From: a virus
DNA length: 64,000 nt
Reading direction: 5' to 3' (one strand)
IMG/VR virus record: IMGVR_UViG_3300024513_000016
Coordinates: 48,243-112,242 of that record
Shown here: positions 33,332-64,000 of the stretch, in pieces
How positions within the stretch are numbered: position 1 is the first letter of the stretch
Layout of the letters: each line of letters opens with the position of its first letter
Notes under the pieces: generated by a model
Told to the model about the DNA's origin: nothing
The model's database searches: none
What the model saw: the letters and a program-made list of their open reading frames with translations, nothing else
Program-made: the position numbers and the translations under genes

Positions 33332-34366
33332 TTATCTAACGTGATGTCCACCGAACATATATCTCATACCATTAAGGATTTTAGATCCGAATGAACCGAG
33401 ATTTCGAGAGTTAAATCTTTCAAATAGTGCCGTGGTAATAACAGGAGCAGGAACTCCAAGATCGACAGCAGCAGAAACAGTCCAACGTCCCTCACCACTA
33501 TCAGATACCCCACCAGAGAACTTTTTAAGATCACCATCCTTGCGTAGTACATCCGCAGTAAGATCAAGTAACCAAGAACCAACTACACTACCACGACGCC
33601 ATAATTCAGCAACCTCTGCAACATTGATATCATAACAGTAACTTTCAGGATCTGCCATAGGTGCAACTTCAGCATCACCTTCTTTAATGTATTGAGATCC
33701 ATTATTTGCATTCTTGAGAATATTGAATCCTTCGGCATATGCCTGCATCATTCCATATTCAATACCATTATGCACCATCTTCACAAAATGACCTGCACCA
33801 GGTCCACCACAATGCAACCAACCATATTCTGCAGAAGTTAGATCAGATGTTGGATCTGTTCTATGGCAGGAGTGAATGTCTGGGGAGAGTGCAGAGAATA
33901 TTTTTGAACAAGTGGAGACCGCAGTATTTCCACCACCAACCATAAGACAGTATCCACGATCCAAACCGTAAACACCACCGCTAGTACCACAATCAATATA
34001 TTGGATGCCCAGTTTTGCCAGACGTTCTGCTCTTTTCCGACTGTCTTTAAAATTGCTATTGCCATGATCAATAATAATATCTCCTTCACTACAATATCGT
34101 AGTAACTCATTGATCGTCTCCTCTACAGTTTCAGCAGGCACAACCATCATAAAAATTCCTGGTTGAGTTTCACCCTTTTTATTTTGTTTAACTACTTTAA
34201 CAAGGTTTTCAATATCATCTACAATTCCATTAACATATCCTTTTTCAAATGCTTCTTGTGCTTTTTCATAATTCCTACGATAACCCCAGACTTCGATATC
34301 TGCTTTCATCATACGACGGGACATTCCTTCCCCCATCCGACCAAGACCAATTAATCCTACTTTCAT
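33332..34366 (-). CDS. gnd: 6-phosphogluconate dehydrogenase, decarboxylating
   Basis: 344 residues. NAD(P)-binding GLIGLGRMGEGMSRRMM at the start, then IIDHGNSNFKDS, IDCGTSGGVYGLDRGYCLMVGG (substrate loop) and GGPGAGHFVKMVHNGIEYGMMQ (catalytic Lys and His-Asn). The length fits the short GndA/YqeC-like class. It oxidises 6-phosphogluconate to ribulose-5-phosphate and makes NADPH, feeding nucleotide synthesis together with TalC in infected cyanobacteria. A small gene ends one base upstream, and GAGGAT serves as ribosome-binding site. Confidence 0.95.
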   Translation of the reverse strand: MKVGLIGLGRMGEGMSRRMMKADIEVWGYRRNYEKAQEAFEKGYVNGIVDDIENLVKVVKQNKKGETQPGIFMMVVPAETVEETINELLRYCSEGDIIIDHGNSNFKDSRKRAERLAKLGIQYIDCGTSGGVYGLDRGYCLMVGGGNTAVSTCSKIFSALSPDIHSCHRTDPTSDLTSAEYGWLHCGGPGAGHFVKMVHNGIEYGMMQAYAEGFNILKNANNGSQYIKEGDAEVAPMADPESYCYDINVAEVAELWRRGSVVGSWLLDLTADVLRKDGDLKKFSGGVSDSGEGRWTVSAAVDLGVPAPVITTALFERFNSRNLGSFGSKILNGMRYMFGGHHVR

Positions 34367-34582: not shown

Positions 34583-35242
34583 TTACTTTTTACTTTTAAG
34601 AACTTTTTCCCAATCATTCTGGAAAAGTTCCAGACCCTTATCAGTCATAATGTTCTTATACATTCCCCAGAATACAACTGGTGGAATAGTAACTACATCA
34701 GCACCAGAAAGAGCAGATTGTTCTACTTGCCTTACGTCACGAAGAGATGCAGCAAGGATTTGTGTTGATGTACCTGAATAATCAAATGCATTACGAATAT
34801 TTTTAATCAACTCAATCCCATCAATTGAATTATCCATCCAACGACCTACGAAAGGTGAGATGAATGTTGCCCCTGCTTTAGACGCAAGAATTGCCTGAGC
34901 AACTGAGAATACTAATGTTACGTTAGTTTGAATTCCCTTATCAGAAAGGAATTTACAAGCTTTAAGACCCTCTACTGTGCAAGGAACTTTAATTGTAACT
35001 GCAGGTGCAATTGTGTAATATTTTTGTGCCTCAGAAAGCATTTCTTCTGCAGTATCTGCGACAACTTCTGCGGAAATGCTCTGTAAGTTTGAAAAGTCTG
35101 TTGCAATCTCGTGGATGACCTGTAAAAGTTGTCTTCCACTTTTAAGAATTAATGATGGATTTGTGGTAACACCATCTAATAATCCTGTTTCATATGCAGG
35201 TTTAATTAAGGAAACATCTGCAGTATCTAAAAATATCTTCAT
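34583..35242 (-). CDS. talC: Transaldolase (TalC-type)
   Basis: 219 residues, the length of the short TalC/fructose-6-phosphate-aldolase-like class. MKIFLDTADVSLIKPAYETGLLDGVTTNPSLI (start), AVTIKVPCTVEGLKA with the Schiff-base Lys (about 85), TNVTLVFSVAQAILASKAGATFISPFVGRWMD and SGADVVTIPP. Cyanophage TalC diverts carbon from the Calvin cycle into the pentose phosphate pathway. Adjacent to gnd, with psbD nearby. Confidence 0.95.
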   Translation of the reverse strand: MKIFLDTADVSLIKPAYETGLLDGVTTNPSLILKSGRQLLQVIHEIATDFSNLQSISAEVVADTAEEMLSEAQKYYTIAPAVTIKVPCTVEGLKACKFLSDKGIQTNVTLVFSVAQAILASKAGATFISPFVGRWMDNSIDGIELIKNIRNAFDYSGTSTQILAASLRDVRQVEQSALSGADVVTIPPVVFWGMYKNIMTDKGLELFQNDWEKVLKSKK

Positions 35243-35317
35243 AAAAAAAGAAAGAACTTATAACTAATTATAATAAATTTTATCTAGGTTTTTATGAATT
35301 GTTATGAATTAAATATA

Positions 35318-35878
35318 TTACAATCTTTTTAGATTTTCTACTAACAATTCCAGTTCTTGTAGAGATGCGTCGTTTTTAAGTGTGTTTGCTCTATTACTGA
35401 TGACCCATACATTGCCTTTTATGTATCCCTTTTCTGGAATGATTTTATCCAATGAAGGACTATTTGGATGATATCCTTTCTTTGGTTGTATCTCAATAGG
35501 AATACCAAGCAAAGGGCAAGTTTCTGGAATGACTATATCAGTAAGTTCAAGATTAAATGGAATATTATTTTGTTTTGCCCTACTCTTTGCTCTTGTTAAC
35601 ATCCTATATTCAACTGACTTTGATACTGCGTTTGGGTCAAATCTTTTTTTATTTGTCTCAACAGATCTTTCAGTTCTTAAACATCCACAAGATTGAGTTT
35701 TACCACTCAATAAACACTCCCTTCTTGTAGATTTGGTTTTACCACCACAAGAACAAGAACACTCACATAAAATATATTTTGGACCAGAACGATATTCATT
35801 TTCAACAGTCAATCTTCCAAAAGTTTTTCCAATTAAACCACCACACGGAATTGATTTTTTATTTAAAGTCATACTCAT
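35318..35878 (-). CDS. Free-standing homing endonuclease-like protein (HNH/EDxHD type)
   Basis: 186 residues. The N-terminal half has a Cys-rich AP2-like or zinc segment (CECSCSCGGKTKSTRRECLLSGKTQSCGC); the C-terminal half has TCPLLGIPIEIQPKKGYHPNSPSLDKIIPEKGYIKGNVWVISNRANTLK, a plan (P-S-L-D-x-I...G-Y-x-x-G-N-V-x-x-I-S-x-x-A-N-x-x-K) typical of phage intron-type and free-standing homing nucleases. It lies directly downstream of psbD. The cleavage site is unknown; psbD or its homologue in rival phages is likely. Confidence 0.8.
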   Translation of the reverse strand: MSMTLNKKSIPCGGLIGKTFGRLTVENEYRSGPKYILCECSCSCGGKTKSTRRECLLSGKTQSCGCLRTERSVETNKKRFDPNAVSKSVEYRMLTRAKSRAKQNNIPFNLELTDIVIPETCPLLGIPIEIQPKKGYHPNSPSLDKIIPEKGYIKGNVWVISNRANTLKNDASLQELELLVENLKRL

Positions 35879-35893
35879 TAACTACTCTATTAT

Positions 35894-35980: not shown

Positions 35981-37042
35981 TCACAAGGCATTGCCTCGTG
36001 GTAATACCTCTTCGGGTAGCACAAAATTTTCATGTGGTTGGTCTACTGGAGCCATCCAGGCACGCAAGCCTTCGTTTAATAATATATTTTTTGTGTAAAA
36101 TGTCTCAAATTCGGGATCTTCAGCAGCACGAATCTCCTGAGAGACAAAATCGTAAGCACGAAGGTTAAGGGCAAGACCAATAATACCGATACTGGAGGTC
36201 CAGAGACCCATAACAGGCACAAACAACATAAAGAAATGAAGCCAACGCTTGTTACTAAAAGCAATACCAAAAATCTGAGACCAGAATCTATTAGCAGTGA
36301 CCATCGAGTAGGTCTCTTCTTCCTGTGTAGGTTCAAATGCTTTGAATGTATTTGATTGATCACTGTCTTCATAAAGTGTATTTTCTACTGTTGCTCCATG
36401 AATTGCACAGAGCAGTGCTCCACCAAGAATACCAGCAACTCCCATCATATGGAAAGGGTTGAGGGTCCAGTTATGGAAACCTTGAAGGAACAAAAGGAAC
36501 CTGAAGATTGCTGCCACCCCAAATGATGGAGCAAAGAACCAACTGGATTGACCCAGTGGGTACATCAGAAACACAGAAACGAATACTGCAATAGGACCAG
36601 AGAATGCGATTGCATTATAAGGACGGATACCCACTAGACGGGAAATCTCAAACTGACGAAGCATGAAACCGATCAGACTAAAGGCCCCGTGGAGTGCCAC
36701 AAAAGTCCAGAGTCCCCCAAGTTGGAACCACCTGACGATATCCCCTTGAGCCTCAGGACCCCAAAGTAGAAGAAGAGAATGACCCATAGAATCTGCAGGC
36801 GTTGACACAGCTGCTGTTAGCACATTACAACCTTCTAAAAAACTTGAAGCAATACCGTGTGTATACCACGATGTCGTAAATGTAATGCCAGTCAACCAAC
36901 CACCAAGAGCAAGATAGGCACAAGGTATAAAAAGTAATCCAGACCATCCAATAAACACAAACCTATCTCGTTTCAACCAATCATCAACTAGGTCAAATAA
37001 ACCTCGTCGTTGATTTTGTAAAGAAATTGTAGATGAAACCAT
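35981..37042 (-). CDS. psbD: Photosystem II D2 protein PsbD
   Basis: 353 residues, the usual D2 length. The ATG at 37042 is set by GGAGG five bases upstream; in-frame codons further up precede the [26 protein letters not shown], the membrane helices, ARG-type [67 protein letters not shown] are clear in order, with Fe/quinone-site His residues (GFHNW; LHFF) and an [17 protein letters not shown]-terminus. Phage D2 replaces host D2 in thylakoid reaction centres during infection. No intron is visible. Confidence 0.98.
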
Positions 37043-37108: not shown

Positions 37109-37747
37109 CTACTTACTCTTCTTTTTCATAGGAGTATCTGGGTCAAGTCCTCTTTCTATTCTATATTGTCTCCATCTTTCCTTTGCTCTTTCACTACATT
37201 TATTTTTACCTTCTTCTGTTTTAGGTCCTTGGACTTCTGGTTTTTTTCTATTTCCTTCATCCCAAGATTTCTTACAACCTTCACTTAATTTTTTCTTATG
37301 TTCTTCTGTTTTTGGAGCATAAGAAGCACCAGGAATAAATGTCCCTTCTTGGAACTTTCTTTTTAGAGTTTCACTTCTTTTCTTATTACTTTCTTCTGTT
37401 TGAGGAACACCAGTTTTTGTTTTCCTCATCTTTTCAACTGCTTCTGGTTTTTTAGGTTTTCCTAAATGAAGCAATCTTAATTTTTCCTTACTTTCTTCAC
37501 TCATAGGTCCTCTATTTTCTCTTCCCCTTTCTTGTCCCAACTTCATAAGAAGAGAAATAACTTCTTCTTTACCTATCATACCAGATAGACCCATCCAAGC
37601 AATTCTATCCTCCTCCTTTCCATATTGTTCCCACAATTTTTTATGTGCCTCTGCGTGTTCCTCAATAGTCATTTCAACAAGATTAGAAGGGTCATCAGTT
37701 CCTCCCATATGTCTTGGAATAATATGATGCTTGTGAGTAAGGGTCAT
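37109..37747 (-). CDS. HNH homing endonuclease with NUMOD3 repeats
   Basis: 212 residues. N-terminal HHIIPRHMGGTDDPSNLVEMTIEEHAEAHKKLWEQYG is the HNH core (HH, N, H). The rest has three or more NUMOD3-like repeats (MSEESKEKLRLLHLGKP; KPEAVEKMRKTKTGVPQTEE; KTEEHKKKLSEGCKKSW), which bind DNA. It ends 66 bases before psbD on the same strand and has its own late box. With the nuclease at 35318-35878 it brackets psbD. Confidence 0.9.
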   Translation of the reverse strand: MTLTHKHHIIPRHMGGTDDPSNLVEMTIEEHAEAHKKLWEQYGKEEDRIAWMGLSGMIGKEEVISLLMKLGQERGRENRGPMSEESKEKLRLLHLGKPKKPEAVEKMRKTKTGVPQTEESNKKRSETLKRKFQEGTFIPGASYAPKTEEHKKKLSEGCKKSWDEGNRKKPEVQGPKTEEGKNKCSERAKERWRQYRIERGLDPDTPMKKKSK

Positions 37748-37769
37748 ATCAAGTATGTTTAACTAATAC

Positions 37770-45418: not shown

Positions 45419-45490
45419 GCGTATGAGAGCATCATACGACAAAACCACCTCCTTGTGGGAAGTGGTGTGCCAGTTGTTAGAGTGTCACTT
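45419..45490 (-). promoter_or_regulatory. Repeated terminator-promoter element 4
   Basis: Minus strand: CAACTGGCACA, hairpin CCACTTCC-CACAA-GGAGGTGG followed by TTTT, then GTCGTATGATGCTCTCATACGC. The stem plus U-run is a good intrinsic terminator for the gene upstream. Confidence 0.65.
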
Positions 45491-45883
45491 TTGAATGTCA
45501 AAAGTGGGAACAGGTGCTCCACCATTACTCGGCACCATATAAACAGTACGACTGGTGTTTTCTTCACCTTGAGTAATCCACAGATACTGAAGATAAGCAG
45601 GATTACCCTTTAGACTATCTCCGATAATGGAGTTTGCCTTAGCAACACCAGTAGCACGGATGATTTCAGCATCAGCAAGTTGTTGTGCCGAATCTTTCTT
45701 TGCTTGTGCTTCAAGCACTGCAATCTGTCGGTTACTTTCGGCACGGGCAAGTTCTGCACGACCAGTTTGAGATTGTTCCCAAACTCGGTAAATCGGACCA
45801 ACGATTGCATCAATAATAAACAGAGAGAGGATAAATGCGACTGCAATTGTAATCAAATTACGCATAAAGTTATCTTGTTTCAT
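45485..45883 (-). CDS. Membrane-anchored SPFH/prohibitin-like C-terminal protein (132 aa)
   Basis: 132 residues. Residues 9-31 form a membrane helix (LITIAVAFILSLFIIDAIVG). The remainder, RAESNRQIAVLEAQAKKDSAQQLADAEIIRATGVAKANSII, then GNPAYLQYLWI, matches the C-terminal coiled coil and 'NP.YLQYLWI' of prohibitins/stomatins, but the SPFH globular domain is missing. Such truncated partners might insert into host HflK/C or prohibitin rings and alter protease control. That is inference. Confidence 0.75.
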   Translation of the reverse strand: MKQDNFMRNLITIAVAFILSLFIIDAIVGPIYRVWEQSQTGRAELARAESNRQIAVLEAQAKKDSAQQLADAEIIRATGVAKANSIIGDSLKGNPAYLQYLWITQGEENTSRTVYMVPSNGGAPVPTFDIQK

Positions 45884-45902
45884 AATTTACCTCAAATAAA
45901 GT

Positions 45903-62625: not shown

Positions 62626-64000
62626 TTAGAAAAGAATATCCAAAGCATTAAATGGATATCTTCTTGTCGTTGATTTAGTTGTTCCAGCAGTTGTTTTAAT
62701 CATAACTTCACTACCTTCTGGCAGTGCTTCTGTAAATTTAATATTGCCATCATAATCAATTGTATATCCAGATCTTGATGTCAGAAGTGAATTATTAAAA
62801 ACATATTCAGTATTATGAATATATGCAGATTGCATAATCCCATCAACACTAATCAGCAATCTAAATGGATTAGAAACTGCAACAGTTTCATAATTAAATG
62901 TTGGAGTGTATGTATTTTCTCCACCAGCAGGACTAATCTGGTCTAATTCATAAAGATCACCAACAGGAATACCAGTTAACTGAGAACCATCACCCTTGAA
63001 TGATGTTGCAACAACATCATCAAGATTATTCAGGCGATCCATAATGATCGTTGTTCCAGATCCTACTGTAATTGTAGATCCAGTTGCAACATTAATATTC
63101 TTATGAATTGTATATAATGTTGTATTTGCTGGTAGTGTTACACTTGAACTTATGTTTTGATCATCTCCAAAAAATCCAAGTGTTGAAAGTCCACCAACAT
63201 TTGAATTGTTTAATACAGATAAATTATAAGTTACAAGCGTAGATCCATCAAAAGTTAAATTACTTGATCCAGTTGGATTATTAGAACCGTCTTTATAAAC
63301 GACTTGATTTGCAGAACCTGCAACTGGTCCTGTTATTCCTTGAGTACCTTGAGATCCTTCAGTACCTTGTGCTCCAGTAGTACCCTGAGATCCTGTGGTT
63401 CCTTGAGTACCTTGAGATCCTTCAGTACCTTGTGCTCCAGTAGTACCCTGAGATCCTGTGGTTCCTTGAGTACCTGTAGATCCTTGAGTTCCGGTAGTGC
63501 CCTGAGATCCTGTGGTTCCTTGAGAACCTGTAGCACCTTGAGTTCCAGTAGTGCCCTGAGATCCTGTAGTTCCTTGAGTTCCGGTAGTGCCCTGAGTTCC
63601 AGTAGTACCCTGAGATCCTGTGGTTCCTTGAGAACCTGTAGCACCTTGAGTTCCAGTAGTACCCTGAGATCCTGTAGTGCCCTGAGATCCTGTGGTTCCT
63701 TGAGATCCTGTGGTTCCTTGAGTTCCGGTAGTGCCTTGAGATCCTGTAGTACCCTGAGATCCAGTGGATCCTTGAGATCCAGTGGATCCTTGAGATCCTT
63801 CAGTACCTTGTGCTCCAGTAGTACCCTGAGATCCTGTAGTACCTTGTGCTCCAGTAGTACCCTGAGATCCTGTAGTACCTTGTGCTCCAGTAGTACCCTG
63901 AGATCCTGTAGTACCTTGTGCTCCAGTAGTACCCTGAGATCCTGTAGTACCTTGTGCTCCAGTAGTACCCTGAGATCCTGTAGTACCTTGTGCTCCAGTA
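62626..64000 (-). CDS. Collagen-like tail fibre protein, C-terminal part
   Basis: Open to the right edge with no stop in frame, so the start is outside; at least 457 codons. From the edge to about 63337 the product is Gly-X-Y repeats, mostly [12 protein letters not shown]. It then passes through [20 protein letters not shown], a beta region, and a C-terminal block with [20 protein letters not shown] and [13 protein letters not shown]. The reading frame of the repeats was checked at the edge and at 63042. Collagen-like triple helices form phage fibre shafts; the C-terminal part is probably the trimerising tip. An internal ATG at 63042 is not a separate gene. Confidence 0.85.
63337..64000 (-). 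repeat. Collagen-like tandem repeats (9/18-bp periodic)
   Basis: On the plus strand, units such as TGAGATCCTGTAGTACC and TTGTGCTCCAGTAGTACC alternate with 18-bp period, encoding Gly-X-Y triplets on the minus strand. Near the edge at least six 36-bp double units are almost perfect copies; towards 63337 they diverge (GTE, GST, GTQ). The perfect units suggest ongoing repeat expansion or contraction. Confidence 0.9.

What the first reader, a model, noticed from the sequence alone, without database searches (positions are those of the whole stretch)
45485..45883. Phage-coded membrane SPFH/prohibitin tail without the SPFH domain
A membrane helix joined to the prohibitin-type coiled coil and NPAYLQYLWI end, but no SPFH domain. 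Could co-assemble with host prohibitin/HflKC rings as a dominant-negative subunit and so change FtsH proteolysis of D1/D2, which matters in a phage that carries psbD.
Basis: partly seen in the sequence, partly recalled or inferred. Interest (0 to 1): 0.6.

Follow-up and report, generated by a model that had tools for sequence, protein, structure and literature searches.

The report
Membrane protein with only SPFH tail
A cyanobacterial virus carries a small membrane protein that is just the oligomer-forming tail of the prohibitin/stomatin (SPFH) family without its main domain; the same stand-alone protein turns up in many unrelated phages, bacteria and some archaea, has no named family in the main protein databases, and probably builds or modifies cage-like membrane complexes.

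Summary
The 132-aa ORF at 45485-45883 (-) has a membrane helix running straight into the coiled coil and C-terminal cap segment of SPFH proteins, with no SPFH domain here or elsewhere in the 112-kb record. Homology to SPFH tails is solid: profile-profile E 4e-10, limited to the tail. Across 584 genomes, essentially every weaker profile hit was a full-length SPFH protein. Two archaeal SPFH proteins carry almost exactly this tail. It is not a phage oddity: stand-alone members of 125-180 aa occur in Caudoviricetes of many genera and on chromosomes of Bacteroidota, Alphaproteobacteria, Desulfovibrionaceae, Patescibacteria, Planctomycetota and DPANN archaea. No Pfam, NCBIfam or PADLOC model hits it; PHROG 11227 calls it 'protease' although it holds only a TM segment and coiled coil. 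Four alphaproteobacterial loci place it in an SPFH-NfeD operon. Best reading: an anchored, exported, cap-only SPFH subunit that oligomerises through its coiled coil and cap, either inserted into host SPFH cages or as its own mini-cage. The specific D1/D2-FtsH story is weak: most carriers are non-photosynthetic, and deleting four Synechocystis band-7 genes reportedly had no apparent phenotype.

The parts
45485..45883 (-). 132-aa ORF: membrane-anchored, SPFH-less tail protein (PHROG 11227 family)
45889..45893 (-). GAGGT, Shine-Dalgarno-like, 5 nt upstream of the ATG
   Evidence: sequence
45800..45856 (-). transmembrane segment, residues 10-28 (in many phages of Proteobacteria the end of this segment is a lipobox such as MAGC)
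   Evidence: hydropathy and lipobox count; alignment
45611..45799 (-). coiled-coil helix, residues 29-91, equivalent to SPFH CC1
   Evidence: AF2; PDB prohibitin match; hhalign
45560..45601 (-). short helix 95-108 (NPAYLQYLWI...), equivalent to SPFH CC2
   Evidence: AF2; alignment
45509..45550 (-). C-terminal strand-like segment RTVYMVPSNGGAPV (residues 112-125), equivalent to the stomatin beta-Ct of the cap; low AF2 confidence as a monomer
   Evidence: Y115, P118, P124 conserved; hhalign; stomatin beta barrel PMC12407830

Best explanation
The gene encodes a cap-only SPFH subunit: an N-in/C-out membrane (or, in relatives, lipid) anchor joined directly to the complete coiled coil and C-terminal cap segment of a prohibitin/stomatin-type protein, with the wall-forming SPFH1/2 domains missing. 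Shown: architecture, tail homology, absence of the SPFH domain, wide distribution, strong conservation. Inferred: it oligomerises laterally through the coiled coil and cap as SPFH tails do. In a cell with SPFH cages it most likely joins the cap ring of such a cage but supplies no wall, so the cage is left with a gap or altered size, changing which membrane proteins can enter it or reach an enclosed protease such as FtsH. In cells without SPFH proteins, or as an alternative everywhere, it forms its own small cage. In a phage this would serve to remodel a host membrane microdomain during infection; the particular client is unknown.
For: Tail homology. In 289 alphaproteobacterial and 295 Bacteroidia genomes the family profile gave 8 stand-alone proteins (E < 1e-42) and 40 weak hits; 36 of the 40 were confirmed as SPFH proteins by the region upstream of the tail and three more show recognisable SPFH sequence. 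Bridging proteins: two archaeal Band_7 proteins (L345, L346; Band_7 E 1.6e-30 and 1.1e-34) whose own tails match the stand-alone family at E 3e-26 and 8e-14. Operons: SPFH-NfeD-mini in L140, L142 and L325, and SPFH-mini-NfeD in L340. Exported side: lipobox at the end of the hydrophobic segment in 28 of 39 non-cyano phage members and 12 of 79 cellular ones; more K/R on the N side than the C side in 165 of 260. Structural precedent: the stomatin cap is built from CC2 and a C-terminal beta strand, with CC1 arching up to it (PMC12407830); the HflK/C hat is about 110 C-terminal residues from 24 subunits, of which only 21 SPFH domains could be modelled, the entryway lying at the missing ones (PMC12048511). 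The helix outside the membrane (63 residues, about 94 A by arithmetic) is comparable with the heights of the stomatin (~100 A) and PHB (~110 A) cages.
Against: No interaction or oligomer data exist. AF2 models the monomer as a bare helix and is not confident for the C-terminus; no multimer prediction was possible. Three of three DPANN carriers and four other carriers have no Band_7 gene in the held genome (some are incomplete MAGs), so co-assembly with a host SPFH is not always possible. Most cellular neighbourhoods are unrelated to SPFH or FtsH (asd, nrdA/nrdB, radA, thiD). The operon cases are few and come from one order, so they may be a few related events. In tall cages (Erlin ~165 A) the helix would not reach the cap.
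Confidence: 0.5

Rival explanations
1. Autonomous mini-cage: the protein forms a homo-oligomeric ring or dome by itself and encloses or corrals a membrane patch or protein, with no need of host SPFH proteins.
For: Single stand-alone gene in most genomes; carriers without Band_7, including 3 of 3 DPANN archaea; conservation runs the whole length of the coiled coil and cap (invariant G41, A43, A59, A72, E73, R76, A81, I86, Y97, Y115, P124), as expected for self-assembly. The published CC1-length regression (PMC12624060) extrapolates to about 21 subunits for a 63-residue CC1.
Against: SPFH domains form the base of known cages; no known SPFH-less cage. Operons with full-length SPFH genes exist. 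Genome completeness of the Band_7-less carriers is unknown.
Confidence: 0.28
2. One reading: a dominant-negative subunit of host prohibitin that alters FtsH proteolysis of D1/D2 to favour a psbD-carrying phage.
For: psbD is in the window at 35981-37042; in S-SZBM1 the homologue lies about 0.7 kb downstream of psbA; Synechocystis FtsH2/3 co-isolates with a prohibitin (PMC11287208).
Against: The family is mostly outside phototrophs; it is sporadic in cyanophages, with 7 Synechococcus phage records from 3 phages in the phage collection. Deletion of four band-7 genes reportedly has no apparent effect on Synechocystis physiology or light sensitivity. The gene is 8.4 kb from psbD among unrelated small ORFs.
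Confidence: 0.08
3. A periplasmic membrane-anchored or lipid-anchored phage protein of another function that merely reuses the coiled coil: i-spanin-like lysis factor or superinfection-exclusion lipoprotein.
For: Size, N-terminal anchor plus periplasmic coiled coil, lipobox forms; in Salmonella phage SPN1S it lies on the opposite strand between terminase and head genes, a moron-like position.
Against: No constant neighbour and no lysis genes beside it in the phage loci examined; chromosomal single-copy homologues in bacteria and archaea; sequence constraint matches SPFH tails.
Confidence: 0.1

Closest known systems
SPFH (Band_7, PF01145) superfamily: prohibitin PHB1/2, stomatin/paraslipin QmcA, HflK/HflC
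   Same: CC1-type coiled coil, CC2-type short helix and C-terminal cap strand are homologous; N-terminal membrane anchor.
   Different: The SPFH1/SPFH2 domains, which define the family and form the cage wall and membrane belt, are absent.
Archaeal Band_7 proteins L345 and L346
   Same: C-terminal tail almost identical to the stand-alone family (E 3e-26 and 8e-14).
   Different: They keep a full SPFH domain.
PHROG 11227 ('protease'; S-PM2p012, S-SRM01 gp139, S-SZBM1 gp172, EaH1 gp112)
   Same: Same family, E 2.8e-42.
   Different: The label 'protease' is a transfer from 'HflC/membrane protease subunit'; this chain is a TM segment plus coiled coil and tail, with no recognised protease domain.
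PHROG 200 phage SPFH lipoproteins (e.g. Salmonella phage PVP-SE1 gp118)
   Same: Tail region matches (E 6e-9); also lipid- or membrane-anchored phage proteins.
   Different: Full-length with Band_7 domain E 6e-21.
NfeD-SPFH operon partners (bacterial SPFH1/2-NfeD, PMC2636767)
   Same: Four loci place the mini gene in such an operon.
   Different: The mini protein is not NfeD and is not described as part of those operons in the papers found.

Membership tests
SPFH superfamily | SPFH/Band_7 domain | tested here: not met
   No Band_7 hit in the protein or in the 112-kb record (the same search rings in all 14 control genomes)
SPFH superfamily | Homologous C-terminal coiled coil | tested here: met
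SPFH superfamily | C-terminal cap segment after CC2 | tested here: met
   hhalign alignment reaches the NKVIYMPYEAT / RTVYMVPSNGGAPV segment; bridging protein L345
SPFH superfamily | N-terminal membrane anchor | tested here: met
   hydrophobic residues 10-28; helix 5-91
SPFH superfamily | Assembly into ring or dome | not testable with these tools
   needs biochemistry or cryo-EM
PHROG 11227 family | Full-length profile match | tested here: met
   E 2.8e-42, residues 2-127 to profile 3-128 of 138
Protease (database label) | Protease domain | tested here: not met
   no Pfam or NCBIfam family over its cut-off
i-spanin | Adjacent o-spanin/lysis cassette | tested here: not met
   no lysis genes next to it in the annotated phage loci and no constant neighbour in 142 loci of the cyanophage-type set

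The most novel reading that the evidence does not exclude
An undescribed, widely spread class of cap-only SPFH subunits shared by phages, bacteria and DPANN archaea that assembles cages without the SPFH domain, or dictates doors in SPFH cages, and that phages have captured several times to remodel host membrane microdomains.
Probability: 0.4. Interest if true: 0.75.

Novelty: new variant of a known kind. Interest (0 to 1): 0.52.

Why it matters
SPFH cages are under intense structural study, and how their wall opens to let substrates reach FtsH is unresolved. A natural, abundant family that keeps the cap-forming tail and drops the wall domain is a ready-made probe of that question. It also shows that a protein labelled 'protease' in many phage genomes, with no Pfam, NCBIfam or PADLOC model, is a conserved cross-domain family with repeated phage-cell exchange (at least 5 changes of label forced by well-supported branches).

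Tried and rejected
Pfam, NCBIfam and PADLOC scans: no significant family; the polyphosphate kinase and ATP synthase b matches are weak coiled-coil similarity. Foldseek against PDB with the AF2 model: nothing (one hit, E 8), as expected for a bare helix. Conserved gene neighbourhood as a guide to function: in cyanophages the neighbours vary and in cells they are clade-specific housekeeping genes, except the SPFH-NfeD operons. Cyanobacterial relatives of the host could not be drawn for a virus record, so a host stand-alone copy was not tested; the PHROG 11227 profile does ring in Synechococcus elongatus, probably its prohibitin tail, but I could not inspect it. Search of E. coli genomes with an enterobacterial phage homologue: no match. 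Literature searches found no paper on stand-alone SPFH tails; phage SPFH proteins are mentioned only in passing. One dN/dS value (L003) was a misalignment and is disregarded. The wider neighbourhood scan missed known ORFs through its overlap filter, so I rely.

Full report
What is there. The minus-strand ORF 45485-45883 encodes MKQDNFMRNLITIAVAFILSLFIIDAIVGPIYRVWEQSQTGRAELARAESNRQIAVLEAQAKKDSAQQLADAEIIRATGVAKANSIIGDSLKGNPAYLQYLWITQGEENTSRTVYMVPSNGGAPVPTFDIQK, preceded by GAGGT. The window is bases 48243-112242 of a 112-kb virus record.

Is the SPFH-tail reading right? Yes. The single sequence matches the PHB2 coiled coil in the PDB at E 4e-4. A 22-sequence family profile matches prohibitins at 1.8e-5, and QmcA, PHB1 and, weakly, stomatin below that. 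A 75-sequence profile aligned to full-length stomatin/paraslipin proteins gives hhalign probability 96.7% and E 4.4e-10, confined to template columns 238-329 of 370 and reaching the terminal NKVIYMPYEA strand. The most telling control is a search of 289 alphaproteobacterial and 295 Bacteroidia genomes: 8 stand-alone proteins at E < 1e-42, then 40 weak hits (E 2e-9 to 1e-3) in frames of 224-532 aa. Of these, 36 were confirmed as SPFH proteins using only the part outside the tail; three more (L300, L309, L317) read as SPFH proteins, and L310 is a fragment of the right kind. The weak hits are thus SPFH proteins rather than coiled coils in general. Two archaeal proteins (L345, L346) join a full Band_7 domain to a tail that matches the stand-alone family at E 3e-26 and 8e-14, e.g. 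RAKGVAEANRIISGSISSQYIQYLWVQGLNDGNSEVIYVPTEANLPILEATRN. They are bridging forms.

Is the SPFH domain missing? Pfam Band_7 does not hit the protein, nor any frame of the record. AF2 gives a single helix from residue 5 to 91, then 95-108, with a low-confidence C-terminus: the membrane helix runs straight into the coiled coil where an SPFH protein would have SPFH1/2.

Where else does it occur? In phages: cyanophages S-PM2, S-SZBM1, S-SRM01; Salmonella SPN1S; Erwinia EaH1; Klebsiella jumbo phages; Pantoea, Achromobacter, Agrobacterium, Erythrobacter, Caulobacter and others, and hundreds of IMG/VR stretches. In cells: Sphingomonadales (often between nrdA and nrdB), Bacteroidales (next to asd, radA, thiD), Desulfovibrionaceae, Parvularculaceae, Patescibacteria, Planctomycetota, Nanoarchaeota and Woesearchaeota, one copy per genome in the six checked. 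It is sporadic: about 1.4% in two classes sampled, 11% in one alphaproteobacterial order, and 4 stand-alone copies in 193 genomes of one archaeal phylum. A tree puts all cyanophage members in one clade (100/100) and forces at least five changes between phage and cell.

Which side of the membrane? In 28 of 39 non-cyano phage members, and 12 of 79 cellular ones, the hydrophobic segment ends in a lipobox (MAGC, LGSC, IGGC); none of 142 in the cyanophage-type set has one. Lipoproteins are exported, so by homology the tail faces the periplasm or lumen, the side on which HflK/C sits. This is inference for the window protein itself.

What does it do? The tail of an SPFH protein makes the cap: in stomatin CC1 arches up and CC2 plus the C-terminal strand form the apex and a 16-stranded barrel (PMC12407830); the HflK/C hat consists of about 110 C-terminal residues of 24 subunits, and the nautilus entryway lies where only 21 of 24 SPFH domains could be modelled (PMC12048511). 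A subunit with anchor and cap but no wall would be expected either to enter such a cap and leave a door, or to make a smaller cage of its own. For the first: four alphaproteobacterial loci have it in an operon with a full-length SPFH gene and nfeD, in two different orders (L140, L142 and L325: SPFH-NfeD-mini; L340: SPFH-mini-NfeD), and the helix length (about 94 A) is compatible with the ~100-110 A stomatin and PHB domes. For the second: 7 of 42 carrier genomes, including all three DPANN archaea, show no Band_7 gene (some are incomplete MAGs). I favour the first for hosts with SPFH cages and keep the second as the main rival.

The D1/D2-FtsH story. FtsH2/3 does co-isolate with a Synechocystis prohibitin, but deletion of four band-7 genes reportedly had no apparent effect on physiology or light sensitivity (PMC11287208), while another group found thylakoid loss for slr1768 (PMC3100299). 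The gene family is mostly found far from any photosystem. The link with psbD is proximity only.

Verdict. A real, conserved, cross-domain family that is unnamed in Pfam and NCBIfam and mislabelled in PHROGs: an SPFH tail without SPFH.

Noticed in passing
L345:877-1722 and L346:1489-2340 (archaeal genomes): Full-length Band_7 proteins whose C-terminal tail is of the stand-alone type; possible evolutionary source of the family.
   Followed up: partly
L140:4396-6405, L142:4452-6405, L325, L340: Operons joining a QmcA-type SPFH gene, nfeD and the stand-alone tail gene, in two gene orders.
   Followed up: partly
Sphingomonadales loci such as L119, L121, L127, L138, L155, L156: The stand-alone tail gene sits between nrdA and nrdB (ribonucleotide reductase) on the same strand.
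   Followed up: partly
L001-L083, L206-L264 cyanophage-type loci: Two N-terminal anchor types and two C-terminal types (VPSN, VPTE) occur in all four combinations around an almost invariant coiled coil, suggesting module exchange.
   Followed up: partly
L084 / SPN1S 2190-2567: The record annotates only 64 aa (SPN1S_0003, 'protease'), but the open frame is 125 aa; it lies on the opposite strand between terminase and head genes, like a moron.
   Followed up: no
L083:3510-3995 and about 20 cyanophage-type contigs: A 161-aa putative lipoprotein (MKPFIALASIALLSVTLVGC...) is encoded just upstream of the tail gene in some cyanophage-type loci.
   Followed up: no
window 35318-35881 and 37109-37762: psbD is flanked on both sides by ORFs that look like HNH or zinc-binding homing-endonuclease-type genes (judged by eye).
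   Followed up: no
window 62626-63999: Collagen-like [12 protein letters not shown] repeats in a large ORF running off the window end.
   Followed up: no
window 33332-34366 and 34583-35257: ORFs resembling 6-phosphogluconate dehydrogenase and transaldolase near psbD, i.e. a pentose-phosphate/photosynthesis cluster (judged by eye).
   Followed up: no
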